From: Prosopocoilus inquinatus
Lineage: Eukaryota > Arthropoda > Insecta > Coleoptera > Lucanidae
Assembly: GCA_036172665.1 (NCBI GenBank)
Contig: CM069872.1
Coordinates: 37,310,101-37,374,100 of the forward strand
Length of the DNA stretch: 64,000 nucleotides
Direction of reading: 5' to 3'
Positions 14,091-62,260 of this stretch are shown here, in pieces (position 1 is the first letter of the stretch; every line of letters starts with the position of its first letter). Made by a program: the position numbers and the translations under genes. Under the pieces are notes generated by a model. The model was not told the origin of the DNA. It searched no databases and saw only the letters and a list, made by a program, of their open reading frames with translations.

Positions 14091-14196
14091 GCATACAGTT
14101 TATATTAAAATATATATGTATTATTATTATAAAAACTACGAACATGTAGTATACATACAGTTTATATTAAAATATATATATATTATTATTATAAAC
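14091..14196. repeat. Two-copy AT-rich direct repeat
   Basis: CAGTTTATATTAAAATATAT followed by ATTATTATTATAAA occurs at about 14096-14133 and again at 14158-14194, a 62-bp offset. The second copy runs directly into the ribozyme repeat starting near 14193. Confidence 0.7.
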
Positions 14197-14375
14197 ATAT
14201 AAAATAGCGACATCTTACTATCGCTTTTTGACCTAACATTGCAGTAGGATAGACAAATTGAAGCGGGATTTGCTCCTAATGAGTCCCCCATGCAAGGCGG
14301 CCATGCTTGCTGTCAAAGCATAATGAAAATTTTAGAAAAATTTTGTGCAAATCGTTTTTGATTGCAGTGAGAACC

Positions 14376-14440
14376 TCGAGCAGCCTCTGGACAGCTGTTT
14401 CAGCCCTGCTTGGGGCTTCTTCAGCAGAAACGTAGCTCGA
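14376..14440 (-). ncRNA. Type I hammerhead ribozyme, copy A
   Basis: The 65-nt minus-strand RNA has an intact core: CUGAAGA, GAA and the cleavage triplet GUC. Stem I has an outer helix UCGAGC/GCUCGA and an inner helix GUUUCUG/CAGAGGC (two G-U pairs), separated by an internal loop (UAC against U). Stem II is AGCCC/GGGCU with loop CAAGCA. Stem III is the palindrome ACAGCUGU (14391-14398), which cannot close on itself but pairs fully with a second copy. Predicted cleavage is between 14390 and 14389. Small hammerheads of Penelope-like elements that work as dimers are known. Activity here is inferred. Confidence 0.85.
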
Positions 14441-14651
14441 CATTCCCACTGCAGACCAAAAACGACTTGCCCAATTTATTCGCAAATGCGATGTAAGAAT
14501 GATGAACATATAAAATAGCGACATCTTACTATCGCTTTTTGACCTAACATTGCAGTAGGATAGACAAATTGAAGCGGGATTTGCTCCTAATGAGTCCCCC
14601 ATGCAAGGCGGCCATGCTTGCTGTCAAAGCATAATGAAAATTTTAGAAAAA

Positions 14652-14823
14652 TTTTGTGCAAATCGTTTTTGATTGCAGTGAGAAACTCGAGCAGCCTCTG
14701 GACAGCTGTCTGCAGTGGGAATGTCGAGCTACGTTTCTGCTGAAGAAGCCCCAAGCAGGGCTGAAACAGCTGTCCAGAGGCTGCTCGAGGTTCTCACTGC
14801 AATCAAAAACGATTTGCACAAAA
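14652..14823. repeat. Fold-back within retrozyme array
   Basis: Arms 14652-14709 and 14766-14823 are reverse complements (58 bp, about one mismatch). The spacer (14710-14765) holds the 5' half of the plus-strand hammerhead. Both arms end inward exactly at ACAGCTGT, the stem III palindrome. Confidence 0.85.
14724..14788 (+). ncRNA. Type I hammerhead ribozyme, copy B
   Basis: Identical over all 65 nt to copy A but on the plus strand, in the inverted piece of the array. The core CTGAAGA starts at 14740, the palindrome ACAGCTGT is at 14766-14773, and the predicted cleavage after GUC lies between 14774 and 14775. All three stems and the stem I internal loop are as in copy A. Confidence 0.85.
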
Positions 14824-14830
14824 AAAAAAA

Positions 14831-17091
14831 TTTTCTATTATTATTATAGAAACTACGAACTTGTTAACGAACATGTTTACAAGCATATCTACTTGCCTGT
14901 ATTCTCCACAATAGAATTTCATCAATTATCATCAATTACAATGCGTAACGATTTTATTAAATACTTGGAATATGTTCACGAACATGTTTAGAAGTATGTC
15001 AACATGCTTGCATCCTTCGTAATAGAATTTGATCAATTACAATGCGAATCGAGATACTTGGGCAGTTTAGTGTTACTGTAAGCCAAACTTGTTGGCGAAA
15101 ACTCGATAAACTGCGAGTTTGCGGTGATGCATCCTGTCAATTCTCGCTAATTAACTTGCTTCCGATTTGAATGCGTCCATTGTTCATTTCGGAGGATCCT
15201 CTTTAGCAAGCAAACGGGTGAAATTGTATGAGGCCGGCAAACTGCGCACACGCTCAATGCGCTACTTGAACTAATTGTGTAATTCGCTTGTAACGCGAAT
15301 GAAAGGGCAAATCTCTGCTATAGGTTCACGAGCACTTAATGAATGCGTCCATTTCATTTTCAAAGTTAATTACGATTAACCAGAGGGAACATGCAGGAAA
15401 AACCTGCTTTGAAAAATGCAGCTTTTTTTTTAAATAATGCTGGTAAAAGAAGAATTAAAAAGACCTAATTAGGCGATTTATGAAAAATAACATCAGGAAA
15501 TAATCATGAAACGATCGAAATTTTATATTTGCTTCATTTGTACATTAGTTTTACTGAAATGGATTGTTTTGGCTATGGTCCGACTAGTTGTAAAATTGAA
15601 TGCTTATTGGTTCGGTTATGGATTGACTTCTTCCGGCATCGGTCTGTACGTTGAGAAAAACCCTTGCATTGGTTTTTAAAACTGTATATCTTCAAACTGG
15701 CTATTTAGACATTGGTTCGAATAATGATAAAATGATGTAATTGGTTTAGAATTGCAGTACACAAATTTTTAAGAGAACCGTCACATCAGAGCAATATTTT
15801 ATGCAGTCGCTTATTAAACATTTTATGCCTTAATCATTATAATACCTTTACATTAAAACCGAAATAATATGTTGTAAACGTAATTCTCATATCGAAATAA
15901 TATCGGTATTTACTGAAATATTTCGATTTACTGCAATCGAAACTGACTCGTAACTGATTTATTGCACTTACAAAGATAATGTTTAAGAGCAGCATCGCAA
16001 GGAAGCTTTCTTAGCGCAGTAGCAAAAAAAAGCATTTCTTTCATTCATTCATTACAAGAGTCGAGACAAATTTAATGATAAGAAATTTAATTAGAAAATG
16101 AGCTTAGACGTGACCATGACAATAACATATTTAAAAAAAAAAAACAGGAAAGATATGTACAAAAATTAAATCGCGGCAACAAATGTGTACAGCCCTACTT
16201 TAAGCCCCTTTTTATCTGTTCCAATTGCTCAGTTAATTCGTACTTCAATGTAAGCATTATAAATTGTAAGATTCATATTATTTTACTACTAGAATCCTAG
16301 CGAGTTTATTTACACGTTTTTTGTTATTTAATGTTTTGATTGCACCCGAGCCGAAGTTGCTCTCAAACGTAATAGCGCACATAGGCGGAATTTCGAGAAA
16401 TCTTGGACTTCAATTTAATAATTGTGATTGTAATTGACAACACTTCAGGAAATAAAAAGTGAGATTTCTGGTTTAATTGATAATTAACTTTTAATAAGCT
16501 TACATATTTGTTATACAGAGTGGATAGAAAGACTGCAGTACCTACTTTAAATATTTTCTAAAACATTTTCTTTCTGTAAAAACGTTTGGACACGTCCATT
16601 TTCAGAATAAATTTACCATATTTCGGAGTCGTTGTACAGAGGCGTACCGTTGGGTTACAAAAATAATTTAATTTTTTAATTGAGGTCAACGCTTTTCCGA
16701 TGAAAATTTGTAAGAAAATTTCAATCGGTAGTCAAACGTTTGGCATTCCTTCCTTAATTAAATGTTGTTTAAAAAAAATGTGTCTGATTGAAACCAGAAA
16801 GTTCTGGAGAATTTTTTCAGGAAAAGCGTTTTCTGTATGCCTGTATCTTTATTTTCAGACTCTTGATCTTCCTCCGAAAGTAAGCCCAAAGGAACACTAC
16901 AGCTGTTTGTGGTATTTCGAAACCATGAAATAGTATTTTGTGTAATGTTGTGGACGTAGAAAGTCATACAAAATGTTTGACAAACATAACTGCTCTCTTG
17001 ACATAATAATTCTTAAACTTAGTCTTAGTTTATCGGGACTGTACTTGTTAAAGCCAAAAGTGTTATAAAAAATAGGTAGATAAAATATAGG
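14831..17091. other. No recognised gene
   Basis: AT-rich DNA. Near 14870-15000 the words GAACATGTTTA and AGCATATCTAC/AGTATGTCAAC repeat loosely. A TATACAGAGTGG word near 16515, followed by sequence reminiscent of common insect repeat termini, may mark an old element fragment. No coding signal is seen; the 77-codon frame at 16700-16933 has no motif. Confidence 0.4.
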
Positions 17092-17310
17092 GTTTGCGCA
17101 AAGGCACCGTTACGCTATAAATGCATTGTTATAAATTAGAAAATTAGTTAATATTAAAAAACGGAAGGAAAAATTACAAAATTAGAAAAATATACTGATA
17201 AAATGGGATAATTTTTGACTACGGTGCTTCTCCTGTTGGTTTTCAGGCATTAATTACATTTTACATTTTATACCGATGGCATTTATAGCGTAACAGTGCA
17301 TTTGCGCAAA
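17092..17310. mobile_element. MITE with about 45-bp terminal inverted repeats
   Basis: The ends GTTTGCGCAAA (17092 on) and TTTGCGCAAAC (to 17311) extend inward as imperfect inverted repeats through CGTTACGCTATAAATGC, about 45 bp with a few mismatches. The interior is AT-rich and non-coding. The total is about 219 bp. No unambiguous target duplication, so the superfamily is open. Confidence 0.75.
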
Positions 17311-17311
17311 C

Positions 17312-20300
17312 TCTTTTTTCTTACTAACACCCGTTATTTTTGCAGATTCTTCATAATTATGGAAAAATTTCCTAGTAGTATTCCCATAATTGCTACTGTC
17401 AAAACCAGGTTTAGGTTTATTTACTATAAGACCAATTTTCTTCCAGAACTCGTCTTGTTTATGCTTCTTTTTATTTCCACAAAATCTTTCTCTTCTTTTC
17501 TAACTTGCCATTTACAGAGATTTGTACTTGTAATTTGTAACTAACACGAAGCAAACAATCAAACAGGATATTCTGAAATTTAAATACTTGCTGTTTCCTA
17601 CTTTTCTTGAAAAATTACATATTAAAATAAATTTCGAATTGCTACGTTTTGAGCTTTCTTCCATAAAACGTCATATACAGGAAGTCTCAGAAATGATGTT
17701 CCTTTCATAAGCTGACATTATTAATGTCGATAAAATATCAAATCGTTTTCATAAAGTTTTACAAGTACTTCAATTGTTGCCAGATATTTTTTAAACTAGA
17801 AAATATCCATAATTTTTCCAAAATTAGCGCTATGAAATACTTAAACGATATTTAAAAAAGTATTATAAATAAAAAATCTGCACACGCAACTTCATTGTCT
17901 TGAAACTTGAAAAATAACCATCATAGGAAAAAATGTTTGCTATTCTAGAGTCGGATTGTTCAATGGTATACACTATTTCAGAAACAATCTGTATTCTTAA
18001 TGTAATTCGATAAAGAATTCAATGAACTATTGCAATTAAGAAAAAAATTGATGGTTACGTAAAAAAAATTATGGCGTCATTAATTGAAAATAAATTACTG
18101 TTAAGAATTGATTTTTATATAGAGATATGTACGTACTTTTTAAAAACAAAATTTACTTGTCTGAGTGTTTTTTTGAATTGTCAAAAATAAAGAAGTGACG
18201 AATTTTATCTAATTTGAGAATAAACGCTTCTCCTTGTTAAAACGTACATTTTGTTCTGTTGTAAATCGTTCATGATGGTCATGTGATGAAAACCAATTAT
18301 GTCATTGATTATAACAGGATGTTACATTTAAAAGAATAGTAAAGGAAACTGATTTAAGCGACTTAATTTTTTGGAATTTTGGCCGGGATTTTATGAAATT
18401 CCGCCCGTGTGCAGCGGCGCGCAGTTGGATTTCGGGTTTTATAAAGGTGGTTATTGTAACGTTTTTCTATACCTAAAAAAAATTGTTGATACGCTGATGG
18501 TTTTTCGCGACGTACTGCTTAAGAAATTTCTTATCTTGAAATTTATCTGGACTATGTCCATTACTTAACCGGATGGTATTAACAGTTTTGACTATAAATC
18601 TTATTCCGGTATATAAGAAATACGTCACGGAAATTATTATTTCGGTAAATGCATAACGATATTTAACGGTAATGTTTTCAGTGGCCTGAACCAATTCCGA
18701 CATCGAAATAATTTGTGTTAAACTGTAAACCAAAATATAATAACGGTATAATACCGGTATTTTTTATTTTATTTTTTTAATTTTTAATAAAGGTACGAGT
18801 CCCTGTTAAAAACTACTTCCGCAGTTAGAGGATTAAGCAAAGCAGTGACTTTTTTTGTCCAGTTTCCGACAATTAAGAAATTTAAAAAAAATGAAAACTA
18901 GAATTATAAAAATTGGTGGAAGCGCCGGATGTAACTATGATTCTTTTTAGAAATGATAAAAAATTTACATTATAAAAAATTTACATTTCCTAAGTAGAAG
19001 AACGAGTTATTAAATATTAGGCCAACCGTATCGATAAGTTTTGCGAGCTTTAAACGTTAAGTGCGAATTAAGTTTGTATGAAGAGTGTCAAGGTTGTACC
19101 CCAAGGAACGAAAGACATGTAACTAGTTAAATTTCATGTATAATGTTAGCCTAATCCTCCAGGAGGCACGTGGAAGTTACTAATATGATGTAGTATTGAT
19201 GAAAATGAAATTAGCAAACCAAATATAACATGATAAGGCACTCTCGATATACCTTGTTCGGGGTCTCCCGAGACGGTTACCTCGTAAACGCCCTTTGGTT
19301 TAGTGCGGTCCACGTCCGCAAGTAAATAAATCGCAGAATTAACAATGCATGCGCTCCCTGCACTAATCTATTTATAGATCTAAACAAGAAAACTTTCGGA
19401 TCGATTTTTATGTTGCTATTATTATAAACGCGGCTTTCTCGGAATCGACAGCCGTGAATGTTCGCCGGCATGCAATACTTGGTAATAATAGGTGGCAGTT
19501 GCGTTCCCGTCGTTGTTTTCGTTATAATACCTAAGAATATATACATGAGAGAATTTTACCGGGGCGCAGGCAACTGCCACTTAAGTATTTTTATTCACCG
19601 GTTTTTGAATCGGTTTCGAATTACTCCGACCGGGAAAATTACAGACGGTAAGAGACGCACGCAATTGGCAGGAAAATTATCCGCAGCACTTTTACTACCG
19701 TTCCCGCAATAAATTCAGCATTTTCCATGCCAACAACCTACACGAGTAAAATACCATAACTTTCCATACTAAACAGAAAATCGGAGTTATAAGCACCAAT
19801 AGTTGCTTTCATTCCGGACGTGCCAGTTCCGGAATTCTGGCGTGACAGTCCCGTACACAAATGCTTTCCGTGCTAAAAAAAGAAAATAATAAAAGGAAAT
19901 ATCACGTCAGCAACGCTGCTATCGATGAAAAACTTAGCAGCCAGCCACAAAATTGATTAAAGCTATTTGCAAACAAATAATTTTCAAGTGGTTACACACT
20001 TTTAGAAATAATTTAGTCCATTATGTAAATCGCCCTTAAATCAATTCCACTTAAAAGTTCTGACACTTTCTGAAATTAGCAAATTAATTCTGCATTAATG
20101 TATGTATTTATACACTTATACATACAAGCACAGCAGAATTAAAACCTTCATTTGTAATTCCCTTCACAAATAAATAACCATGTGATTGACGAATTCAAAT
20201 TGAATTCGAGTGTTGCTAAGGACGAAACCTCTGAAATATTTTACATACGCGAGTTATACGCCCTCTAAATACCAGACGCCTTTCATGAAACTGCCTTTTC

Positions 20301-21139
20301 TTTGCGAGTTAAGAGACATCTACCGTCCTGAAACTGAAACTGCGTAGCAGACCCGCACACCCCACACCGGTGTGCAAAGGTCACTGCATCTGAAAGCTCG
20401 CAGCTTACTCGCTGTAAGAAAAGAGAGCTTTCGTTAAGCGAAACTCCTGAATTTCAGTTTAAGGTTCCCGCGCTGCCTGAATTATTGAAAGCTCATGAAA
20501 TAAAGATGTCGCTCTAGAATGAAAATGGCATGACGCACTAAAAAACAAAAACAACTTATTTTACCTACTTCGATAAACATTATAAGAAATGTGATTAAAT
20601 TTACTTTTAAGTAGAATAATTAAAAATGTGTGACGTTGGGGGGGTTCCTGAAATTAACAGAGTTAGAAAATCGTTGAAAACCGGCAAAAAATTCGGTCGC
20701 TCATTCATGTCCAGTTATCCCTTAGAGACAGAATGAATTCAGAGGCAATAACAGTGAACGCAAAAAGCGGTGATTTACGATTTGAAAATCACTGCTCTCT
20801 ACATAGACGATGCAATAAAATGATAATTCTCGAGTTATTTGTTATTCGAGTTTGCTGTTTTTGATTCTGCCTGAAAAACAAACGACACGATTACATCAAA
20901 CTTGAATTATTGTTACAAAGCGATCAAGATACTAAAATTACAAAAAATATTGTATTACTTAAAAAATATTTTGGTATAGCAGATTATATTTCTAAGTAGT
21001 GCTCAGCAATTGAAATTAACAAATATTTATGTTTAATTACTTTATATAAGTCGTAAAATTCAAACTTCTCTGTATTATTAAATCAATTTTCCAGTTCAAT
21101 AAATAACATTTTAAACATATACATCAATACACACCAACG
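17312..21139. other. No recognised gene
   Basis: Repeat-poor by eye and AT-rich. The frames at 19277-19546 and 19458-19712 overlap on opposite strands and have no motif. Short tandem duplication of AAAAAATTTACATTAT near 18957-18985. GC rises slightly at 19.2-19.7 and 20.3-20.5 kb without a visible exon. Confidence 0.4.
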
Positions 21140-23570
21140 GTTTGATTTAAGGAGATCTTAATGTCGACTGTTTAACTGAAACTACAAACAAAAAGCTACT
21201 GTTTGATCTAAGTGAATCTTTCCAACTACGCTCATGAATAAATGGACCAACACGTATAACTAGAAATAGCAAAAGTAGTTTGGATTACATCATAACAAAC
21301 GCAAATTTTTTGACGCACAAAGTCGTCGAACTTAACATTGCTGATCATACAACACAAATAATCATTGTACGTACGGAATAAAATAGATCACAACCAGATC
21401 AAAACTATCGGTTTCGTTTTTCACAAAATCATAATGAAGATAATATAAATAAGTTTATAAACTGTGTCTCAAATATACGTATGATCAGTAAAACTTCTAA
21501 TCTCTGATCAATTTTGGCCTGAATTTAAATATTATTATGAACTATGCATTCCAACCCAAAAAAAAATAAATATTCATAATAATAAACTACCTTGTTATGA
21601 CAATGACTCAACAAACTTACAAGAAAATTTAAAACAATTAAATTGGTCCCAGACGTCAATATAGAGTCCAACTATGAAACCCTAAAAAAGAAATACCGTG
21701 ACCAAATAAATTTAAAAAACCTCTTTTTTCCAATAAAATTAATAATGCCAAAAATAAAAATAAAACATTATGAAATCCCTAACTAATCAATCCGCTAGGG
21801 CACCGCTAAATATTATTCTCGAGCAAAATAACATTAAATATATTAATCCTTCTGAAGTAGCAAACTTATTTAGTGAGTACTAAAACAAACCTAAAAAAAT
21901 TAACGATCATTTTAAAAATAATATTAACGATAATTGTACATTTTCTTACAGTAATGAAACTCACTCACTCACTCACTCTCACGCCTACATCTGAAATTAA
22001 AATAAATATATTAATAATAAATTTAGAAAACACAATCGAGCCTGATGGCGTATCATTTCATATATTAAAAAAATCTAAAAAAATTTGTTGCAAATCGTTT
22101 TTCATTGTAGTGAAATCCTCGAGTAGCCTCGCTACAGCGGTGTGAGCCCTATTTGGGGCTCCTTGAGCAGAAGTGTAGCTCGGTTCTACTGCGAACCAAA
22201 ACGTTTCAACCAAGGATCATCGCAAACTCGGTTCAATTTGTCTACCCTAATGCAATGTTAGGGCAAAAAGAGATCGTAGGATGTCGCTGTTTAAACTATT
22301 CATTAAAAAAATCTAGTTCATATATTACTCCCATTTTGAGTGAAATAATAAACTTCTCTTTCTCTTCATAATCAATATGGTTTTCGTGAGAATTATTCTA
22401 CTGAAACTTCGGCCATTGAGTTTGTTCAATCTATACGTAACGCCCTCAATTCTAAGCTTAAAGTGGCTGGTATCTTCTATGATTTAACGAAAGCCTTTGA
22501 CAGTCTAAATTTCAATTTAATACTACATAAACTAAATAACTTAGGTCTTAGAGGTACAGTCGGAAAATGACTTGAATCAAATTTATCCAAACGCTAACTC
22601 TTTGTAAAAATTAATGAACATTATTTCAAACAATTTCGATCTTACTATGGGAGTACCTCATGGAAGTGTTCTAGGTCCTTTAATCTTCTTATAATTTATA
22701 AATGATCTACCTAATCACACACATAAAAATTTTTGGGATTAATTCTAATTTGCCCATTCGGTGTTAAATATGGATAAAGTTTTATCTGAAAAGTTGTTAA
22801 TCTTCATCGAATTTGGCGTTATTGTTCTCTTTTTCCGACTAAATTGTATCTAAAAGTGAGTGTTTATTCCAACAAGGATAAGCTTAACTCTACTCTATTA
22901 CATACGTTTAAATGGTAAACATCCTAACTCCGTTTTTCGTAACTTCGCAAACGGATGGACGCGAGGGAACACCGAAAAAGTGTTCCCTGGCGTCCAAAAG
23001 GTGTTAGAATTAACTACAGATTTTTATCAGTGCATATATCTAAAGGGCAGGTATATATGTTTGCAGATAACACTACAATTTTGATTATAGCGTCAAATTA
23101 CTGTATATTGAAGGAAAAAGTTAATATTTTTACTAATTAATTTAATGAATGGTGTACCAAGAACAGACTATGACAAATCTGTTTGCGTAGATTTCTATTT
23201 CTACTTACATACATAAGTGCACTCTAACCAATTCAATAAAGCCGAAAAAGTTCATGCACACAATACCCGTTTCAAAGAAATTCTACGTCCTGAGCGTCCA
23301 ATACCAATACTAAAAATCGCCGTCATATGCGGGAATTTTCTATTATAATAAGCTTCCTAAACATCTCAGAGAATCGAGAATACCGGCCTTTTTTTAAATC
23401 TAATTTAAAGAAATTCTTAGTAAGTACTTGCTTTTATAATATAAAAGAATTCTGCTGATAATATTTCAAAATTATATACTTTTATATTTTACATTTTCTT
23501 ACGCTTTTGTTTGTTTTACATTTTGTTATATAGACATGTAAAGACGTGTAACATGTAATAACGACATAGT
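21140..23570 (+). pseudogene. Non-LTR retrotransposon, jockey/CR1-like, split by a retrozyme copy
   Basis: GDLNVDCLTE (21151 on), GPTRITRNSKSSLDYI and IADH near 21340 are the C-terminal part of an APE-type endonuclease. IEPDGVSFHILKKS (about 22036-22077) starts the RT domain, which resumes after the insertion at 22302 with SSYITPILSEIINFS. FYDLTKAFDSL lies at about 22474-22508, a decayed GVPHGSVLGPL near 22650 and FADNT near 23060 (second catalytic Asp replaced by Asn). The C-terminal HNTRFKEI, YNKLPKHLRESRIPAF and FKSNLKKF pattern is at 23255-23440. A short AATAAAATTTTTGTTATTAA-like tail ends it near 23590. Stops and frameshifts throughout. Confidence 0.87.
22078..22301 (-). mobile_element. 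Retrozyme-like insertion with 14-bp target duplication
   Basis: The 224-bp insert is bounded by ATTAAAAAAATCTA at 22064-22077 and 22302-22315. Removing the insert and one repeat restores the RT reading frame (HILKKS to SSYITP). The insert contains the ribozyme-family sequence on the minus strand, with a decayed 65-nt hammerhead at 22119-22183: the core reads CTCAAGG instead of CTGANGA, and GAA is changed. The AGCCCC/GGGGCT stem is kept. The segment around GCGACATCCTAC lies in the opposite orientation relative to the ribozyme compared with the 14-kb and 41-kb copies, so at least two layouts of the family exist. Confidence 0.85.
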
Positions 23571-23599
23571 TAATAAAATTTTTGTTATTAATATTTCCT

Positions 23600-27000: not shown

Positions 27001-27004
27001 CTAT

Positions 27005-28290: not shown

Positions 28291-28389
28291 ACACTGCCGA
28301 ATAAGACAACAATTTGCTAGGCAGTAGGTCAATTAGCAATTCCAGTATTGGAGTTGAATAATGTCCATAAGATTTGAAATTTCTTCTTT

Positions 28390-29402: not shown

Positions 29403-29405
29403 TTG

Positions 29406-29840: not shown

Positions 29841-29844
29841 TTGG

Positions 29845-31360: not shown

Positions 31361-31363
31361 GTG

Positions 31364-37250: not shown

Positions 37251-37260
37251 TTTAAAGTTT

Positions 37261-37315
37261 AGGAATAGCTGAAAGTTATGAGCGACGAAGATGCTCATAA
37301 CTTTCAGCTATTCCT
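37261..37315. repeat. Perfect inverted repeat, 23-bp arms, 9-bp loop
   Basis: Arms 37261-37283 and 37293-37315 are exact reverse complements (AGGAATAGCTGAAAGTTATG then AGC). The spacer is GACGAAGAT. It lies about 240 bp upstream of the RTE-like remnant and is the first of three perfect fold-backs in 800 bp. Confidence 0.95.
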
Positions 37316-37867
37316 TCCGATAAAGTGCTGAAATTCCTTCGAAGATCAAAAGAAACTGATAGTATCCGTTAAATAATTTTTTGATAAACATGAATTATAG
37401 ATAGCAAAATGTTACTGAAGGTACGATGATTTGGCTTCCATACCTGAACCAGATGATGTAAAGAGCAAGAAAACGCAAATTCGCTAGGGTTACTTAATTT
37501 TGGGCTTCTTATCAAATGTCCCCTGAGATTGACCTTACTTTCATTTAAACTGATGGAAAGACAAAGTATGGAAGTTAGTAAAGGCGATTTGGGAAGAAGA
37601 GAAGATGCCGAAAAGCTGGCAAAGCGCAATAATAGTGCCCCTGTTTAAAAAGGGAAATGAAGCGAGTGTACTAATTATAGAGGTATATCTATATTAGATG
37701 TAGCTTACGAGATTTTGGCAACTGGCCACAAGAACAGATAATACCAAACTGGATTTAGGAAGGGACGAGGAAGAACAGACCAACTCTTCACACTTCACAC
37801 ACTTACGACATGTTATGAATATGGAATCCCGGCAGTTTCATAGATTTTAAGAAAGCCGATTCGGTCG

Positions 37868-37911
37868 AAAGGTCAAAGCTAATTAGAGGATTCTAATTAG
37901 CTTTGACCTTT
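37868..37911. repeat. Perfect inverted repeat, 20-bp arms, 4-bp loop
   Basis: Arms 37868-37887 and 37892-37911 (AAAGGTCAAAGCTAATTAGA and its complement) with loop GGAT. It lies inside the RT pseudogene, five bases before the 116-bp palindrome. Confidence 0.95.
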
Positions 37912-37916
37912 TGACT

Positions 37917-38032
37917 ATGTTCACCAACTTTACCAATTTTCTTGGTACTTTTAATTCGTTTAAGATTAAACGAATTCGTTTAATCTTAAACGAATTAAAA
38001 GTACCAAGAAAATTGGTAAAGTTGGTGAACAT
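37917..38032. repeat. 116-bp perfect palindrome inside the RT pseudogene
   Basis: Positions 37917-37974 are the exact reverse complement of 37975-38032 with no spacer; the centre is CGAATTCG. The right arm is the RT coding strand (LNELKVPRKLVKLVN); the left arm is an inverted copy of it. Because of the symmetry, mirror frames on both strands give the same peptide. The insert breaks the reading frame between SKLIR and the rest of the RT. Confidence 0.95.
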
Positions 38033-38912
38033 GACATTTAGAAACACGACATGTAACGTGAGAATAAAAGGACAAACAACAGGAGATTTTGGAGTACGAA
38101 CAGGCCTTGGACAAGGGGATCCACTCTCGATTCTACTATTCAAAGAGCTTTAGAGAAGATAGTCAGAAATAACCAGTTAAACAGAGAAGGAAACGTAGTA
38201 CATAAAAGCCATCAGTTGATTGGATATGCCGATGACGTTGCTATAGTAGCGAGAAGTAAGAAGGAGCTAAAAATAACTGTAGAGCGATTAGCAAAAGCAG
38301 CGTACAAAGTACTACACATAAATCAAGAGAAAAGTAAAGTAATGAAAATCGGTGGACGTGATGAAACAATGAAGCAATTCTAAATAAATATAGGGACAGA
38401 AAAAAATGTTTCTTGAGCAAGTGGAGTACGAAAATCAGAACGTACAAAACAATATTAAGACCAACCTGTACTGTATGGCTGCCAGACAAGGGTGCTAAAT
38501 AAGAAGGCGCAGGAAATGTTGTTGAGGTGGGAGAGGAAACTAATTAGAAGGATAGAAAACTGAATATGGATGTAGAACAAGCCAGAAGATTTATGATATA
38601 TACAAGACGCACCTCGAAAGAATGGCGTAGCACAGAACGGCAAAAGCAATAGGTTGAAAAGTTCCAGAAGAAAAAAAAAAAAAAGGAAGACCACCGAAAA
38701 GATGGAGAGAGGCAAAAACATAAACAACTGTAAGAAGAAAGCAAGAAACAGAAAAGTTTGGAGCCAAATTACAAAGCTGCGGCTGTATATATAAACCAAT
38801 GGAATTTCAAAACATTAAGCCTTGTTAAAGTTTCTCTTACTGGTTGCCATTTAACGTTATCTAAGTTCCTATCCAGTTAGGCCGATAATAACTCCCTTTT
38901 CACGTTATCTAA

Positions 38913-39116
38913 TGCCCGGTTTCTGAAACGATACATAACTTTAGGTAGAGATAAAGTCAAGTTAAACTCACCATAACTTCTAAAAACCGTTTCTCAAAAC
39001 TTTATCTGTAGATAAAGGGTATACGTAGCAACATAAACAATTTAATTTTTCATAAAGTTATCTGTCAAGAAAATTTATGTTTACCTAAAGTTATTTATCG
39101 TTCCAGAAGCCGGACA
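38913..39116. mobile_element. MITE with TAA target duplication
   Basis: The ends TGCCCGGTTTCTGAAACGAT (38913 on) and the imperfect complement ending CCGGACA at 39116 pair over about 35 bp. TAA flanks both sides (38910-38912, 39117-39119). The CCGGTTTCT core of the end is shared with the MITE at 12514. The interior has further inverted AAAGTTATCT-type words. PIF/Harbinger-like by duplication size; inferred. Confidence 0.75.
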
Positions 39117-39639
39117 TAAGTTCATCAAAATCATACATGAAATGACATTTACTAATTACCATTTGTTCCTCTTCTTAAATGTTCCACTGGGTTGGATTTT
39201 CTTGCTTGGCACAATTTTCTTCATTCTGATTTTTCTGAAAATTAAAGAAGACACCAGGCTGGAAAAGGAAAAGACTTTATTTTTATTTCTTGTATTTAAA
39301 ACCTGTTCAGATGAAAGTTAATTAACACCGACCACCTTAATTATTTATTTTCATACCATATCTTTATTTACATTATCGCCTTATAATAAATATGGATGTA
39401 CACTTCAGAGGAAGCATTAATTTATAGATACTAAAAAAGGATAAAATATATAACTTTGTGGGGCGCCTGTTGTCACACGGTAAATATTCATTTACGCGGG
39501 GGAGTGAGATGTACTGTCGCGATCATCGAGACCATTGCAAGCTAACTATGTCCTGGAAGATGTTGGTAGTAATGTGTCAATTGTCAGTCGGCCTCTCGAT
39601 TTGCTTGACCGTGACTGTAACATAGTCTAGAGTCCTATC

Positions 39640-39745
39640 TTCTCTCTCTCTCTAGAGTCTGAAGTCCTATCTCTCTCTCTAGAGTCTAGAGTTCTATCTC
39701 TTTCTCTCTCTTTACAGTGTAGAGTCCTTGCTCTCCTAACTCTCT
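39640..39745. repeat. TC-rich minisatellite
   Basis: Three to four imperfect copies of a TCTAGAGT-CCTATC unit with CT dinucleotide runs. It creates the arginine-rich minus-strand frame at 39627-39836, which is not a gene. Confidence 0.85.
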
Positions 39746-40222
39746 CTAACTTCATTGCTTCAGTATTCAGAGTATAAGGTAGTCTTCGAGTTAGCTTCGG
39801 CGTGATGCCAGAATAAAACCAGCAAAAGTTCACCAAGTTAAAATGTCACATACACTACATATAAGCTTGTAACATGATTTGCATAGGTTCACTAACGTAA
39901 AACAAAAGGAGTGCGTAAACATATCGATTGTTTCACTGAAATTTGAAAAACGGCAAAGGTAGGACAGGATACATCAGGTTGGCGTCCGATTTTAAGTTTA
40001 TGAGGACAAATGAATACGACGCTAACACTAAGCTATTGTACACGTAGCATGTGCCATTCTATCTGACAAATAAATTTAACCTTCAGATAAGGCGGTGAAG
40101 AAACCGAGCCTATGACGATCTATCTTGTCTTGTTATATTAATAAATTAAACTCAAATGTAAATATATTGAAATTGAATATTATTTATCTGATTTTAACGA
40201 TAGAATATGGTAATCATATATA
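39746..40222. other. No recognised feature
   Basis: AT-rich spacer between the minisatellite and the MITE at 40223. Confidence 0.4.
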
Positions 40223-40712
40223 TACAGGGTGATTCAAAATAAGTGTCCAATCCGTCAAGCCAAGTAGCACACAGATAAAGAAAACAAAAAGTCTATATGC
40301 ATAGGGGGTCTAATATCCATAGTTTTTGAGATAAAATGAATTGAAGATTCAGATATAAATTGGTTGACGGACACTATAAATTGGTTGATGGGCAGCTGTA
40401 CTGCATCACAAGAGCAATGAACTCACGTGAAATAGAACGAAACAGTAGCGTTTACCTTGAATTAAAACTCTAAAACGTTTTTATTTATGGCTTTCTGCGG
40501 AAAAAATGTATAATACGCAATTCTTTCATTCGAATTTCGGACTTGGGTATGTATACGTAAGAAATGAACCATAATTTCTATTTTGGAATCAAAGAAGGTT
40601 GATTTCTGAAATGCCTCTGACAGAATTATTTCTTGCAATTCAATTTCACACTTGCATGACCTTAGTGAATACGCTCCTAACGGGTAGGGCACTTACTCTG
40701 AATCACTCTATA
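40223..40712. mobile_element. MITE, CAGGGTGATTC-type ends
   Basis: The left end TACAGGGTGATTCAAAATAA (40223 on) and the complement of the right end (to 40712) pair over about 28 bp with several mismatches. TA at both edges fits TA-directed insertion. About 490 bp, non-coding; the frame at 40462-40692 lies inside it. A similar CAGGGTGATT start is seen at 47574. Confidence 0.7.
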
Positions 40713-41560
40713 TAGCCGTTGTCGGATATATGGAAATATAAATTTACATATTGGTACCTATACTTCGAATGTGTCAATATACAGGCTGTTCTTTTACTGT
40801 GTGCAAATAAAAAAACCTCATTATAAGTACATTAAATGCTACTTACTGTGCGTATTTTCCTGTGGTTACCGTACTATAGCCAAAAAATTTTGGAGATTCA
40901 GCTTGTTTGGAACCGTTGATATGTGCGAAAAATACTTGCAAGGTCGCAAAGCCTTCGTACACACCGACCCGCATTGAGTTTCGCAGTCAAACCCATTTCG
41001 TAGCGTTTTGTAATAATAATCACCGATATCGTTCATTAATTATTTTATTTAAAGTTTTTATTCACTGAGCGAAGTAATACGTTTTACGATATCAACTATT
41101 GACGAAAATGTTTAAAATTTATGCACCAATTAGACAAGCGCGTTAAAAATATTCTTCCTTCACCCTTTTACGTAAATAAACTTTTACTGTAATCTCACTA
41201 CTAGCTATGAAAGTATTACTACTTACGGTCCATGGAAAAAAAAGTTTAAAATTTTTGTAAGTCTATTAAAAATTAATTAATTTGTTCGGCAATTACGAAC
41301 CGCAGCTTCTTGAATTGCACTAGACTTTAATTTAAAAATCCTTAAACTTGTAATTACTTGCAGTGAAGTTAATTTAAATTGTAAACGTTTTGACCGATTA
41401 GCTGTGATCGGAGCGGCTGAGTTACGTCGTTCATGCTCAAGAGCAAGTAATGCACTGACCCTGGCCTACTTCGGCTTAATTGAAGCGGCGGCCGCGTTCC
41501 ACTTTTAACTATGTCAGCAGTTCTTAAACGGTTTAGTGAAAATCTACCACTGCATTTTTC
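40713..41560. other. No recognised gene
   Basis: AT-rich, with the motif-free frame at 40771-40977. No repeat partner seen. Confidence 0.4.
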
Positions 41561-41618
41561 TCGAAAACTATTAAATTTGCAATTTTGTTGCAAATCGTTT
41601 TTGATTGCAGTGAAAACC

Positions 41619-41683
41619 TCTAGCAGCCTCTGTACAGCTGTTTCAGCCCTGTTTGGGGCTTCATCAGCAGAGACGTAGCTCGA
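41619..41683 (-). ncRNA. Type I hammerhead ribozyme, copy C
   Basis: Core CUGAUGA, GAA and the triplet GUA are intact. Stem II AGCCC/GGGCU has loop CAAACA. Inner stem I GUCUCUG/CAGAGGC has one G-U pair; outer stem I has one mismatch. The palindrome ACAGCUGU (41634-41641) is perfect. Predicted cleavage lies between 41633 and 41632. Compared with copy A, the cleavage nucleotide is A rather than C and core position 7 is U rather than A, both allowed by the hammerhead consensus. Confidence 0.85.
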
Positions 41684-41761
41684 TATTTCCACTGCAGAGC
41701 AAAAACAACTTGTCCAATTTATTCGCAATTGCGATGTAATAGTGATGAACAGATAAAACAG

Positions 41762-42429
41762 CGACATCCTACTATCGCTTTTTGACCTGACATTGCACTG
41801 GGATAGACAAATTGAAGCGGATTTGCTCCTAACAAGTCCCCCATGCAAAGCGGCCATGCTTGCTGTCAAAGCATAATGAAACTTTAAAAAAAATTGTTCC
41901 AAATCGTTTTTGATTGCAATTAAAACCTCGAGCAGCCTCTGTACAGCTATTTCAGCCCTGTTTGGGGTTTCATCAGTAGAGACGTAGCTGGACATTCCCA
42001 CTGCAGGCCAAGAACAGTGTAGTATCAGGTATACCTTGCAAAATCGGTATTCTGTAAACAATTTACTTTACAACTTATCAAGTGTGATATCAAGTTAATA
42101 TGCACGTCATGTCTTCAATTGGCGGTCGGTAATCCACTTGAATTGTTATGAAATCGTATCAAGTTCTCTTCAATTATTGAAGACCATATCAATTGATGTA
42201 CATATCAATGTTACAGAATAGCCCTGATTGTCTCAGAACTTCAATCAATATATTCTGTTGTATCATTAACGGATATCAAAACAATAATTGTCCTTGGATG
42301 GGCCCTTAAGGCATCAACATTATACCGGGTGTAATCAAATGTAGTTTCACATATTAAAACTGTAAGTTCTTCATGACTTAAGAAAACGAATTCTGCATAT
42401 CTTAATTTTTTTGGTGAAAAATGAAAGAA
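41762..42429. repeat. Composite repeat, copy 1 of 2
   Basis: Near-identical to 45594-46261 at a constant offset of 3832 bp; identical by eye from about 41801 on. It joins the ribozyme unit (with copy D) to a non-ribozyme segment containing a possible small MITE (42046-42224, ends GGTATTCTGTAA and TTACAGAATAGCC) and most of the left arm of the fold-back starting at 42321. Confidence 0.9.
41928..41992 (-). ncRNA. Type I hammerhead ribozyme, copy D (damaged stems)
   Basis: Same 65-nt length with core CUGAUGA, GAA and GUA kept. Each stem has a defect: the first stem I pair is A against C, outer stem I has C against C, stem II has one A-C mismatch, and the palindrome reads AUAGCUGU. Cleavage would be between 41942 and 41941. 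Reduced or no activity is likely. Confidence 0.7.
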
Positions 42430-43451
42430 ATTAAGGACCCACAAGAGCCCGGAGTCTTTTTATGCAAGTTCCTCGTCATGTAAGACAATTAGTGCCGCAA
42501 TTATTAAACGTCTAACTCAAAAATAAAAAAATGACCTACTAAAGGAGCGTTAGTACATTTGTTTGAGAACTTCCGGTCAATCCTGCGTAAAGACATCATA
42601 AAATAAAACTCCAGCAAAAGTCAAGGTCAAAAGCTTGATCGCATTTTTAAAAGCTGTGATGTTTTATGTAAACACAATATCAAATTCATAGTGTCCCGGT
42701 GGTTGCCCACGTGTGCAATTTGATTAAAGAAGACCATTTTAAATGTACTCTCACTGATTATAGAATTAAATTTGTTTTATTAGATGATCGACAATAATTA
42801 GATTTTAGTATGAATCACATAAACATAAACTTTATTCTTTATTAAATAACAAAAGAGTCTGCAATAACGACAAGACTAAATAAATAAATACGTAAAATGA
42901 ACAAGCATTCGACAATAATTTAAGTAAAAGATAGGTTCTTTGTCACATACTCCTCGATGTCATTTATTTGACAGTGTAAGCAAAACAAAATAGTCAAACC
43001 ATAAATGAAGGGACATTGAATACCGACGTGCATTGTTTACAATAATTTTTAGAATGTTGCCTTAAATGTTTTTATTTCCTAGCTTTTACTTATTGTTACA
43101 CTTTTGTCAGCAGAAAATTAACTTAATTAATCCAGTAAGTAATGTCACAAACGTGATGGATGTTTATTTTCTTTTGGTATGGAATTCCTGAGCGAAGATT
43201 TTATTGACCCAGTGCCCTTCATTTCGATGACGCTTTATTGCTTTATGTTTTGTTTATAATGTAATGTTTTGCTTAGAAAAATTCACACACGATCGGTCAG
43301 AGGTTCTCAAATAAAAAGACTCCGGGCTCTTGTGGGTCTTTAATTTCTTTCATTTTTCACCAAAAAATTAAGATATGCAGAATTCGTTTTCTTAAGTCAT
43401 GAAGATCTTACAGTTTTAATATGTGAAACTTATTTGATGACACCCTGTATA
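42321..43451. repeat. Large fold-back, about 140-bp arms
   Basis: Arms 42321-42462 and 43311-43451 are inverted copies at roughly 90 percent identity by eye, running from CTTTTTAT at the inner end to TATAC(A/C)GGGTGT at the outer end. The spacer of about 850 bp has no frame with a motif. A third copy of most of this arm lies at 46153-46261. The outer TACAGGGTG words resemble ends of other MITEs here. Confidence 0.85.
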
Positions 43452-45590
43452 CTTTAGATGATTTAGTTTTAATTTCACAAAAAAATCCCTGTTTTTAAAG
43501 ATGCTGCCACAAGATTTAATTACTCCTCTGAAACCATATTGCGCGTACCTTTGTTAATAATTTTTTTTATAAAATATTAAAAATTATTCTGCCTAAGAAT
43601 GCGAGATTTGGAGCTACTACATAATATTAATTAAACCCAAAACTATCTCGTACCTTGCCAAAATCAAATAGAAAGCGTTTTGAATGCCTGTGTTTGGTTA
43701 TCAAGTAAAAACTTGCAATTATCAGTGTTAATTTAAAATTTTAAAATGCTTTTAAATTTGATTAATCTTTGCGATGGTATTAAAATTTGGGTAAGATAAA
43801 GTGTTAAAGCTGCAAAGCAGCGTAGGTATTTCAGCGAAATTAGGTGTTAAAGAAGGCGCAGTCGAGTTTGCAAGTAATTCTGCTGATATTAATCTTTCGT
43901 AAGTTTATTAGAAACGAAAGTTAATGCGATAAGGCATTAGAAGTTGGGAGCTTTGGCGTCGGAGTCGCAGAAGTTATTTTTATATTGAATTCAAACGTAA
44001 AGTTAGCGTCACGAACGAGTCGCGAAGTACAAGAATTATACGAGTTTTCCACGTAACGTATGGGAGCGATAAATATATACATTGTACTGAATTATCATAG
44101 GATCTGTTTTCTATTTCGGGCCGGGCGTACATAAGGAGACTCCAGTCTGCTTTGCATCCTGATGTTAGTGAGCCGGTTAGCGTTATTCTCGATCACAGGT
44201 GCAATTTATGGTTCTCTCAAGATCGAATTCTGAGATTTACGACCTCTATCTTCGAAACTATTGCCTATACTTCTTATCCCCCGTATATCTCCAGAGATTT
44301 GCGATTTATCAAAAATCGCCGCTATCGTTTTCCCGCTGGAATCATATTAGTTTCTGGAATAATTGATGAGTTTGGACGACCGGCTTGCCGTGACGTCGAA
44401 TCTGGTCAGCGTCGGGTCGCGTTCATCAAGTGGAGAGCTCCATAAGCGCGGATCAGTGCGCGAATATTACGATCCGTCAGCGTTACCTCGACACCCATCT
44501 GCTGGCCGCCACAAATCATCCGCTCCCGGGGGCAGAGCAGTCAGCTGTCACAGGGTGAAAATCCGCCGCGACACACGTTTCACAACAATAGAATCACGAC
44601 GTGGCTGGAAAAGTAAACTTCCCTGTCGTACAATCTCACGGGGCGTGTGAACGATGTTGTACTCGACATGTCGAGGAGGTGCCGTTACAACTTCAGAACA
44701 AGAACTCGTTAAAAACGGAATAGTTTTTAATTTGCGCGGCCGTCGTTTTCCCGCGAGATGCGAAATTCGCTGCTCATTCCTGTGCTTCCACTCAGAATAT
44801 CCTTTTCTCCGTATATAATGCTGCAAACGAGTGCCGGCAGAGTGGAGGCACAATGCAATATTCAAGATCCTCTGTTTGAACTAAGGAAAATAAATTGTCT
44901 GGCTTGTATAATGGATGAAGGGAGTTCATAGGGCAAAGTGATGGCGTGCCACTGAGAAATCTCGAGCCACAGACCGTTACACTTGTTGAAGCTACTTACT
45001 TACCCTAATTCACTTAGCTCAGTATACACGCCATGCTCAGTTCTATTCATCCGCTCCTTTATTAATGACGCCGTCGCCGAAGCTATTTTTACAATTGCTT
45101 CCTTCCTCCCTCGATCGTCGCTTCTCACTTCTAAGGCGCATGTAATTAAGCAAACCTTTAATTATAGCCTAGGGCCACTCTTCTCTTCGCTCGCTCTTCG
45201 CTCAAAGGAGTTGTTAGCGATGCAAACAAACACTATTAACACAAACAGATATTCGGCATATTTTTAGAAGCTTTGCGCTGTTTCAGCTCACGGCAACCAT
45301 CGCTCAACATTCCCAATACTGCACAGCCAACGGGAAACTTTTGGCTTACAGCGATGCGCATTAATTTTAAACAACAAAAATTTCTTGCACGTCTATTAAT
45401 TTCCAATTTAAAGGGACGGCGCGGTTTATTATTCTCGAATCAATTACTTCCCTCATCAGCAGAATAAACAAACAGGGTGACGTACAATGCCCTCTAAGCA
45501 CATTCACTTTTTGCTTTCGGCACCTTATCCAAATATTACCAATTACCACCAACACAAATCTTACTATGAATAATAATTTTAGTGATAAAA
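43452..45590. other. No supported gene; GC-rich patch 44.1-44.9 kb
   Basis: Overlapping frames at 44152-44445, 44363-44650 and 44548-44865 lie in a GC-richer patch on both strands and have no recognised domain. The patch could be a promoter or a conserved element. The frame at 44983-45267 also lacks a motif. Confidence 0.4.
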
Positions 45591-45593
45591 CAG

Positions 45594-46261
45594 CTACATC
45601 CTACGATCGCTTCTTGACCTGACATTGCAGTAGGATAGACAAATTGAAGCGGATTTGCTCCTAACAAGTCCCCCATGCAAAGCGGCCATGCTTGCTGTCA
45701 AAGCATAATGAAACTTTAAAAAAAATTGTTCCAAATCGTTTTTGATTGCAATTAAAACCTCGAGCAGCCTCTGTACAGCTATTTCAGCCCTGTTTGGGGT
45801 TTCATCAGTAGAGACGTAGCTGGACATTCCCACTGCAGGCCAAGAACAGTGTAGTATCAGGTATACCTTGCAAAATCGGTATTCTGTAAACAATTTACTT
45901 TACAACTTATCAAGTGTGATATCAAGTTAATATGCACGTCATGTCTTCAATTGGCGGTCGGTAATCCACTTGAATTGTTATGAAATCGTATCAAGTTCTC
46001 TTCAATTATTGAAGACCATATCAATTGATGTACATATCAATGTTACAGAATAGCCCTGATTGTCTCAGAACTTCAATCAATATATTCTGTTGTATCATTA
46101 ACGGATATCAAAACAATAATTGTCCTTGGATGGGCCCTTAAGGCATCAACATTATACCGGGTGTAATCAAATGTAGTTTCACATATTAAAACTGTAAGTT
46201 CTTCATGACTTAAGAAAACGAATTCTGCATATCTTAATTTTTTTGGTGAAAAATGAAAGAA
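45594..46261. repeat. Composite repeat, copy 2 of 2
   Basis: Near-identical duplicate of 41762-42429. The left edge differs slightly within the first 40 bases. The right edge stops at ATGAAAGAA (46253-46261) and joins directly to another ribozyme-repeat fragment, where copy 1 continues into the fold-back. Confidence 0.9.
45760..45824 (-). ncRNA. Type I hammerhead ribozyme, copy E (damaged stems)
   Basis: Base-for-base the same as copy D, within the duplicated composite repeat. The core is intact and the same four helix defects are present, showing that they pre-date the duplication. Confidence 0.7.
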
Positions 46262-46550
46262 GAAGTCCCCCATGCAAGGCGGCCATGCTTTCTGTCAAAG
46301 CAGCTGTACAGAAGCTGCTCGATGTTTTCACTGCAATCAAAAACGATTTGCAAAAAAATTTTTAATAACTTTACTAACAAATTTTGTTGCAAATTGTTTT
46401 TAATTGCAGTGGATCCCTCGAGTATCCTCTGTACAGTTGTTTCAGCCCTACTTGGGGTTCCGTCAGCAGAACCGCAGCTCGAGATTTCCATTGCGCACCA
46501 AAACGGCGTGGCCGAGGATATTCGCACATGCGATGTAAAAGAAATTAAGC
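46262..46550. mobile_element. Retrozyme fragments in opposite orientations
   Basis: At 46265-46300 a minus-type fragment (CCCCCATGCAAGGCGG) stops and a plus-oriented fragment starts with CAGCTGTACAGAAGCTGCTC (46301 on), the ribozyme from the stem III palindrome onward. From about 46380 a minus-strand copy follows, with a 65-nt hammerhead at 46418-46482 whose core reads CTGACGG (last A lost) and whose palindrome is ACAACTGT. None of these looks functional. Confidence 0.75.
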
Positions 46551-46552
46551 AA

Positions 46553-47050
46553 GGTTGGTAGAGCTGGTCTGTGTATTAGAAGGTTGCCTTGATGCAGATA
46601 GGATGATTCGGATCCGTAACTCGTTACGTCACGTCACGTGATAAATTCCACTGGGCATATTAATGAGATTTTTACATTATTTGATCAGTAGGTTCATAGA
46701 ATTGATTCCATTTTTGGTGAATTAGATTGAGCTTTAGGCTCAATTCTCACACGAGCAGCGCGTCGCGTCGCGTCATATTTTTACATGTAATTTTTTGACA
46801 TAAAATGCTGCCTAGTGAGAATTGCTTTACTTAAAACCATGGCAACTTTTAGAGGCAGCAAAATGACGCATCGTGACGCGACGCGCCGCGCTGCCGTGTG
46901 AGAATTGCGCTTTAGTGCTGCCGTATTGAGAGAATTGAGCCTTAGGAGACAGATTAACACTCACTCTATTTACTTCACTGTGACGGACAGAAGTCGACGA
47001 CAGACGTCATGAGTTACTTTCGCGGAAGGGTGGTAACGATCAAACTACAC
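46553..47050. repeat. Dispersed repeat, copy 2 (with MITE)
   Basis: Homologous to 7164-7440 on both sides of the MITE at 46737-46941. It is bordered by ribozyme fragments on both sides: minus-strand before, plus-strand after. Confidence 0.75.
46737..46941. mobile_element. PIF/Harbinger-like MITE with TTA duplication
   Basis: Perfect 12-bp ends GGCTCAATTCTC/GAGAATTGAGCC, flanked by TTA at 46734-46736 and 46942-46944. The paralogous repeat at 7164-7440 lacks this segment and gives the empty site. GCGTCGCGTCGCGTCA near the left and its complement near the right extend the inverted repeat; the right side carries a short extra copy of the end sequence. Length is 205 bp, unusually GC-rich. A 3-bp TTA target is typical of PIF/Harbinger. 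Confidence 0.85.
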
Positions 47051-47059
47051 TTCCTTAAC

Positions 47060-47350
47060 CTTGTAATGAAGTTTAAGTAGCGACATCCTGCGATCGCTTT
47101 TGACCTGAGATCGCGAATATCCTCGGACAAGTCGTTTTGGTTTGAACGAACTACGCTTCTGCTGGGAAAGCCCCAAATAGAGCTTAAGTAGCTGTACAGA
47201 TATACAGATACTCGAGGGATCTGCTGCGATCAACAACGATTTGCAATAAAATTTGTTTAAACTTTCATTATGCTTTGACAGCACGCACGGCCGGCTTGTA
47301 TGATATAACCTATTATGTAGCAAACTGGCTTCAGTTTGTCAATCCTAATA
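47060..47350 (+). mobile_element. Retrozyme-like copy, decayed
   Basis: Plus-strand copy starting GCGACATCCTGCGATCGC, then a ribozyme-equivalent region at about 47146-47215. The core reads CTGGGAA and GAA is lost, but CTGCTGGG, AAGCCCC, AGCTGTACAG and ACTCGAGG landmarks remain. It continues through the ACGATTTGCAA tail and the TTTCATTATGCTTTGACAGC segment. The orientation of GCGACATCC relative to the ribozyme is as in the 22-kb copy. Confidence 0.75.
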
Positions 47351-62258: not shown

Positions 62259-62260
62259 TA

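What the first reader, a model, noticed from the sequence alone, without database searches (positions are those of the whole stretch)
14193..47350. A dispersed, tandem ~310-bp retroelement family carrying type I hammerhead ribozymes (retrozyme-like)
Seen: nine ribozyme-family pieces at 14.2-14.8, 22.1, 41.6-42.0, 45.6-45.9 and 46.3-47.3 kb. Five keep all core nucleotides of a hammerhead in a constant 65-nt frame, and decayed copies (22119, 46418) keep the same length. Tandem periods are 311 and 309 bp. Known: animal retrozymes are small tandem non-autonomous elements with type I hammerheads, thought to use Penelope-like or other RT in trans and to give circular RNAs. Inference: this family belongs to that class in an insect-like genome.
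Basis: partly seen in the sequence, partly recalled or inferred. Interest (0 to 1): 0.93.

Follow-up and report, generated by a model that had tools for sequence, protein, structure and literature searches.

The report
Hammerhead-ribozyme retroelements inserted as hairpins
A small RNA parasite with a self-cutting motif has pasted itself into an animal genome as back-to-back copies whose two ends sit at two fixed places in its sequence, a pattern also seen in Penelope-type genome parasites, which hints at the machinery that copies such elements.

Summary
In detail: the window holds eight type I hammerheads of one 311-nt repeat family. A covariance model built only from seven relatives elsewhere in the genome finds all eight and nothing else at E<=10; Rfam reports none in the window. 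The retrozyme features I could test were met; absence of PBS and PPT was not searched for. Of 86 mapped sequences, 60 are head-to-head foldbacks with both outer ends at sense 3' ends. In 40 of 55 de-duplicated foldbacks one outer end lies near unit position 60 and the other near 199, including all 27 with a target duplication of 9 bp or more. Duplications of 10 bp or more flank 26 of 58, 0.7% in shuffled pairs. Seven of 7 foldbacks examined of a Penelope-like element (PLE) in this genome pair two sites of its own. Best reading: PLE-type machinery inserts retrozyme RNA by priming from both target strands at two start sites. Paired ends are known for PLEs; my searches listed no such report for retrozymes. 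Cleavage, circular RNA and the partner PLE remain untested or unknown.

The parts
14376..14440 (-). Type I hammerhead ribozyme, intact core; predicted cleavage between 14390 and 14389
   Evidence: R2 hit 14384-14430, 62.0 bits, E 1.5e-15
14724..14788 (+). Inverted copy of the same hammerhead, right arm of the foldback
   Evidence: R2 hit 14734-14780, E 1.5e-15
14194..14835 (.). Foldback retrozyme insertion: left arm about 1.7 units, right arm about 0.4 unit; outer 3' ends at unit phase 202 (site B) and 49 (site A)
   Evidence: 13-bp TSD TATTATTATTATA at 14181-14193 and 14836-14848, low complexity, the right copy 12 bp beyond the mapped end
22076..22301 (.). Decayed foldback insertion, ends at phase 64 (A) and 199 (B)
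   Evidence: 12-bp TSD ATTAAAAAAATC at 22064-22075 and 22302-22313
22119..22183 (-). Decayed hammerhead
   Evidence: R2 hit 22127-22173, E 1.6e-4; core changes seen
12441..12489 (.). 49-bp micro-foldback: antisense phase ~201-169 joined to sense phase ~35-58 over a 5-nt overlap; ends B and A; no hammerhead inside
   Evidence: 11-bp TSD AACTTTTTGTG at 12430-12440 and 12490-12500, read by eye
12382..12425 (+). Hammerhead-like stretch of the minimal PLE form, just upstream of the micro-foldback; no PLE coding remnant was found in the window
   Evidence: pattern hit; by eye like the hammerhead of PLE L083; tblastn of 121 PLE proteins against the window at E<=1e-3: 0 hits
41581..42015 (-). 1.4-unit tandem, single arm, 3' end at phase 51 (A); inferred source of the 45.6-kb copy
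41619..41683 (-). Type I hammerhead, intact core
   Evidence: R2 hit 41627-41673, 67.3 bits, E 4.4e-17
41928..41992 (-). Type I hammerhead, intact core
   Evidence: R2 hit 41936-41982, E 4.2e-11
45585..46362 (.). Foldback with 5' transduction: left arm 45585-46302 ends at phase 191 (B), carries 414 bp like the flank of the 41.6-kb locus, then a short retrozyme piece (46264-46302); right arm 46298-46362 ends at phase 54 (A)
   Evidence: imperfect TSD AATAATTTTAGT/AATAACTTTACT, 10 of 12, at 45572-45583 and 46364-46375, read by eye
45760..45824 (-). Type I hammerhead inside the transduced copy
   Evidence: R2 hit 45768-45814, E 4.2e-11
46379..46538 (-). Older retrozyme arm with a decayed hammerhead (46418-46482)
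   Evidence: R2 hit 46426-46472, E 1.3e-9
47079..47356 (.). Very decayed retrozyme pieces with a hammerhead remnant
   Evidence: R2 hit 47156-47202(+), E 4.7e-6

Best explanation
This is an animal non-LTR retrozyme: a 311-nt repeat without recognisable coding function whose RNA carries a type I hammerhead. Inferred path: tandem copies are transcribed; the hammerhead cuts the RNA and a host ligase closes circles (taken from published animals, not tested here). An RT and endonuclease of the Penelope-like type takes the RNA in trans, makes a staggered cut, and starts reverse transcription from both target strands, on one strand near unit position 60 (site A) and on the other near 199 (site B). 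Each cDNA runs upstream, in some cases more than once round the unit. The two cDNA 3' ends join through short overlaps or at a palindrome (ACAGCTGT, hammerhead stem III), giving a head-to-head foldback. Shown from sequence: the hammerhead motif with covarying pairs, the foldbacks, the two preferred ends and their pairing, the TSDs, and the same architecture in a co-resident PLE. Inferred: circular template, self-cleavage, which PLE supplies the protein, and a two-subunit enzyme.
For: Hammerhead: RF00163 finds 8 places in the genome, 7 over cut-off, and 6 of the 8 match the unit at its hammerhead, two of these being copies of one another; R2, built without window sequence, finds all 8 window copies; 3 of 12 pairs change on both sides across 12 sequences, 92.1% of cells paired against 20-52% when slid. 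Foldback: 60 of 86 mapped sequences; 37 of 42 untruncated insertions from the loci of a foldback query and 17 of 29 from those of a single-arm query; 0 tail-to-tail. Ends: 100 of 110 outer ends fall in two windows covering 18% of the unit; A+B in 40 of the 45 foldbacks with both ends classed, 49% expected, p=2.5e-8; 27 of 27 with TSD of 9 bp or more. TSD of 10 bp or more in 26 of 58 against 0.7% in shuffled pairs. PLE in the same genome: 150 GIY-YIG hits scored of 2232 candidates, with neighbours within 6 kb in '-+' order 46 times, '--' once, '+-' never; RT and GIY-YIG in a 788-aa frame; 7 of 7 foldbacks examined pair an end at 45-48 with one at 84-88 past its hammerhead. A purified PLE protein cuts and extends both strands and starts internally at two sites (PMC11167929, main text read). 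PLEs are described with head-to-head inverted pLTRs, an optional tail on one of them and TSDs of 8-10 bp (PMC3846280, passages).
Against: No sequence similarity between the 311-nt unit and PLE L083, so the partner family is not identified. TSDs are longer than in this PLE: 10-14 bp against 8-11 bp read by eye. The A-B distance is about 139 nt against about 39 nt in the PLE. Fifteen of 55 foldbacks are not A+B (5 A+A, 10 with one end elsewhere), and 32 of 58 have no TSD of 9 bp or more. The A and B windows were set after seeing the data. In vitro the anole PLE showed no difference in start site between strands (PMC11167929). Copies were best-scoring ones, not a random sample.
Confidence: 0.7

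Rival explanations
1. Self-priming: one cDNA or antisense strand folds back on its own end and is copied, so the second arm is a copy of the first (self-priming on an antisense template is favoured for Penelope in PMC3846280).
For: 13 of 106 inner 5' ends lie at phase 303, the start of the ACAGCTGT palindrome. In 12 of 43 foldbacks the two arms are at least as alike as either is to any other locus, ties included.
Against: It would lead one to expect equal outer ends, but 40 of 45 classed foldbacks have two different ones. In 5 of 43 foldbacks the arms differ by at least 3 sites more than their distances to the nearest other loci add up to, two of them with TSD of 10 bp or more.
Confidence: 0.13
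2. LINE-type machinery with ordinary twin priming makes the insertions.
For: Twin priming also gives head-to-head arms (recalled).
Against: LINE twin priming, as I recall it, does not use a pair of fixed internal start sites; here both ends are fixed and a PLE with its own enzymes shows the same pattern.
Confidence: 0.1
3. A DNA transposon or MITE with terminal inverted repeats that happens to contain a hammerhead.
For: Many insertions have inverted ends and a TSD.
Against: The two ends are different positions of one repeat, insert size runs from 49 bp to 11.4 units, and centres differ between insertions; one window copy carries 414 bp of another locus's 5' flank, which fits an RNA copy.
Confidence: 0.03
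4. The template is a linear uncut multimer and the hammerhead plays no part in insertion. This can hold together with PLE-type insertion.
For: 0 of 106 inner cDNA ends lie within 3 nt of the predicted cut, 2.0 expected by chance, so there is no sign of templates ending there; one insertion looks copied from read-through RNA with upstream flank. In the anole PLE, hammerhead mutants did not change insertion in vitro (PMC11167929).
Against: At 22 pool-polymorphic sites successive units in an arm disagree in 271 of 3857 comparisons (7%) against 37% between insertions, which fits one unit copied repeatedly, though a homogeneous array would do the same.
Confidence: 0.35

Closest known systems
Metazoan non-LTR retrozymes (Cervera and de la Pena 2020, PMC7229834; parts 1-4 of 6 read)
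   Same: 311-nt tandem unit without recognisable coding function, type I hammerhead, 42.8% GC, TSD over 4 bp, PLEs in the same genome
   Different: Head-to-head foldbacks with paired fixed ends are not described in the parts I read; 'inverted' occurs 0 times in its main text. Its supplement was not readable here.
Penelope-like elements, Penelope/Poseidon type (PMC3846280 passages, PMC11167929 main text)
   Same: Head-to-head inverted arms, two internal RT start sites with a tail on one arm, TSD, palindromes at junctions; hammerhead in PLE L083 and in the anole PLE
   Different: The retrozyme has no RT or endonuclease, its two start sites are about 139 nt apart against about 39 nt in L083 and its relatives, and its hammerhead has the longer canonical frame
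Plant LTR retrozymes (PMC4918200; seen only in the listing)
   Same: Non-autonomous elements with a hammerhead
   Different: Type III hammerhead, LTRs and 4-bp TSDs (as described in PMC7229834)

Membership tests
Metazoan non-LTR retrozyme | Monomer of about 170-400 nt without coding function | tested here: met
   311 nt; no Pfam hit at E<=0.001 in the 232-aa frame that runs through the 41.6-kb copy
Metazoan non-LTR retrozyme | Type I hammerhead with conserved core | tested here: met
   core pattern intact in 175 of 196 hammerhead frames extracted
Metazoan non-LTR retrozyme | Tandem copies, dimers to multimers | tested here: met
   up to 11.4 units in L065
Metazoan non-LTR retrozyme | Low GC (under 45%) | tested here: met
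   42.8% for the window's unit
Metazoan non-LTR retrozyme | TSD longer than 4 bp, when present | tested here: met
   10-14 bp in 26 of 58 foldbacks
Metazoan non-LTR retrozyme | No LTR, PBS or PPT | tested here: inconclusive
   End structure is not LTR-like; PBS and PPT were not searched for
Metazoan non-LTR retrozyme | Co-resident PLEs with minimal hammerheads | tested here: met
Metazoan non-LTR retrozyme | Self-cleaving RNA and circular RNA in cells | not testable with these tools
   needs RNA
Penelope-like element | ORF with RT and GIY-YIG endonuclease | tested here: not met
   the unit is 311 nt and the one long frame through a copy has no Pfam hit; so not a PLE, though its insertions look like PLE insertions
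Penelope-like element | Head-to-head inverted arms, one with a fixed extra tail, plus TSD | tested here: met

The most novel reading that the evidence does not exclude
One small RNA, probably circular, docks a two-subunit PLE-type enzyme at two fixed sites 139 nt apart, and each subunit primes cDNA synthesis from a different strand of one staggered cut; the retrozyme parasitises a built-in two-site asymmetry of PLE integration, and 'tail' and 'no-tail' PLE ends are the two halves of one reaction.
Probability: 0.45. Interest if true: 0.82.

Novelty: new variant of a known kind. Interest (0 to 1): 0.66.

Why it matters
Which enzyme moves animal retrozymes has been left open (LINEs or PLEs, with PLEs called a strong candidate, PMC7229834). 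The paired fixed ends give a signature that can be read from any assembled genome with retrozymes and that points to PLE-type machinery. The same signature in an autonomous PLE suggests that insertion from both target strands with two different start sites is a usual way for these elements to land, a step not resolved in the in vitro work I read.

Tried and rejected
Rfam on the window gave no hammerhead; I therefore tested the motif through genome relatives. Two-template origin of arms: L041 and L025 looked like cases at first, but L041's low identity is mostly a gap and L025's arms differ no more than its second arm differs from other loci; 5 of 43 remain as two-template, 12 favour one template or tie, 26 are undecided. 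Private variants in both arms: 1, against 82 in one arm only, too few to decide. Conservation of the core is only slightly above the rest (0.985 against 0.957 outside the 65-nt frame; 11 of 311 rotations, itself included, reach the core's value), as most copies are young. Sequence shared with PLE L083: none beyond chance. ORF 41369-42067: no family. Identifying the organism: COX1 searches did not complete. Two hammerhead papers were not held.
Full report
What is there. The window lies in a 650-Mb genome held as G000, contig C4. Five hammerhead frames of 65 nt with an intact core and three decayed ones belong to a repeat with a unit of 311 nt. Rfam does not report them, but RF00163 finds 8 places in the genome, 7 over its cut-off (74 of 83220 first-look candidates were scored), and 6 of the 8 match the unit at the hammerhead. 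A model from seven of these eight loci (L052, which repeats L051, left out) finds all eight window hammerheads, E 4.4e-17 to 1.6e-4, and nothing else at E<=10. On 12 sequences, 3 of 12 pairs change on both sides and 92.1% of cells pair against 20-52% when slid. Against 500 shuffles the share paired and the covariation score are reached by none and cells with a two-sided change by 1; but pairs with a two-sided change (388 reach it) and further pair types (490 reach it) do not exceed the shuffles, and relatedness inflates that test.

How copies lie. I fetched stretches around the best-scoring copies of two DNA queries and the RF00163 hits (40 candidates scored of 249 and of 6672 in the two DNA searches) and mapped them on the unit, position 1 being the base after the predicted cut. 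From 108 groups, 86 distinct sequences of 90 bp or more were kept; a few are the same locus cut twice or duplicated loci. Sixty are foldbacks whose two arms both read outward in sense; 0 untruncated ones are tail-to-tail. Because the first query was itself a foldback, I compare samples: 37 of 42 untruncated insertions are foldbacks there and 17 of 29 with a single-arm query.

Two preferred ends. Of 58 untruncated foldbacks I dropped three as duplicates (L010, L020, the third in L035). In the 55 left, 100 of 110 outer ends lie in window A (44-72) or B (186-212), together 18% of the unit; the windows were set after seeing the data. Forty are A+B, 5 A+A, 0 B+B, 10 have one end elsewhere; the dropped L010 was B+B. 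Among the 45 classed, A+B is expected in 49% under free pairing; p=2.5e-8. Of those with a TSD of 9 bp or more, 27 of 27 are A+B. The five A+A cases have direct repeats of 0, 5, 6, 6 and 8 bp; in L029 the flanks are inverted copies of each other. TSDs: 26 of 58 have 10 bp or more, 0.7% in shuffled flank pairs; lengths 10-14. Some are low-complexity. Arm length does not depend on the site (40 pairs, p=0.54). In the window the four insertions for which I read a duplication are A+B: 14.2 kb and 22.1 kb, and by eye 12.44 kb and 45.6-46.4 kb. The single arm at 41.6 kb and the decayed pieces at 46.4 and 47.1 kb were not tested for a duplication.

The 49-bp insertion at 12441-12489 is telling: about 30 nt or less of each arm, no hammerhead, yet ends B and A and an 11-bp duplication. 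It lies next to a hammerhead-like stretch of PLE form (12382-12425).

The 45.6-kb copy. 45584-46261 equals 41752-42429 at 99.3%. The 410-bp flank occurs at full length at two places, both in this window and both 100%, among the 40 candidates scored of 3328; parts of it are repeats found elsewhere. The 5 differences lie within 41763-41800, so the first ~50 nt of this arm may come from another template. It reads as a 5' transduction by read-through RNA.

A PLE with the same habit. GIY-YIG hits: 150 scored of 2232 candidates, all 150 over cut-off, most with the same score. Neighbours within 6 kb are in '-+' order 46 times, '--' once, '+-' never. L083 is a foldback with a 788-aa frame holding RVT_1 and GIY-YIG, arms identical over 1743 bp, and a minimal hammerhead. 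I looked at seven foldbacks, six of them chosen because their two endonuclease hits are close: 7 of 7 have one end at 45-48 and the other at 84-88 nt past the hammerhead cut; by eye six have duplications of 8-11 bp and L084 lies in a T run. This agrees with published PLE structure: inverted pLTRs, a 31-bp tail optionally present on one of them, TSDs of 8-10 bp, junction palindromes (PMC3846280, passages), and with two internal RT starts and extension of both strands by a purified PLE protein (PMC11167929, main text). That paper saw no strand difference in start site.

Mechanism. Different outer ends argue against copying one arm from the other. Arms compared in 43 foldbacks: 12 at least as alike as to any other locus (ties included), 5 from two templates by my criterion, 26 undecided. 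At 22 sites that vary in the pool, units within an arm disagree in 271 of 3857 comparisons, arms of one insertion in 153 of 2070, different insertions in 6948 of 18712. So both arms often come from the same or a very similar RNA; subfamily history and gene conversion between arms could also do this. Inner ends: 13 of 106 at phase 303, the ACAGCTGT palindrome next to the core; 0 of 106 within 3 nt of the cut where 2.0 are expected. RT stalling before stem II and annealing at the palindrome would explain the first (inference). Nothing here proves a circle.

Known or new. Retrozyme sources: PMC7229834 (parts 1-4 of 6 read; term search: 'inverted' 0 times), PMC7761336 (passages), PMC11722881 (passages), PMC8490949 (passages); for PLEs also PMC12910113 (passages). 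In the listings of searches of the held open-access library I saw no title or start of abstract that reports foldback retrozymes with paired fixed ends; most listed papers I did not open, two relevant papers are not held and supplements were not readable. So this is a known kind of element with an insertion anatomy that I did not find described, and that ties it to PLE machinery. Which PLE serves it is not known: no shared sequence with L083, different TSD length, different site spacing.

Noticed in passing
window 37917-38032: Perfect 116-bp palindrome, self-complementary end to end, under the miRNA-like Rfam matches below cut-off. Looks like a MITE-type element.
   Followed up: no
window 6200-6673 (-): 157-aa open frame with a zinc-knuckle-like stretch (by eye) and a weak match to a Pol beta-barrel domain (E 0.0012, under cut-off), perhaps a Copia-like remnant.
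   Followed up: partly
window 11387-11621 and 11917-12151: 85% identical direct repeats about 530 bp apart.
   Followed up: no
window 62252-62459: Imperfect inverted repeat of about 200 bp, 77%.
   Followed up: no
L084-L089, centres: In six short PLE foldbacks the two arms stop within 0-14 nt of the same position, near 1985 or 2095 of the PLE unit, partly a selection effect.
   Followed up: partly
L048 and L050, about 1501-1547: Rfam hammerheads without a match to the 311-nt unit but by eye with similar neighbouring motifs, probably old subfamilies.
   Followed up: partly
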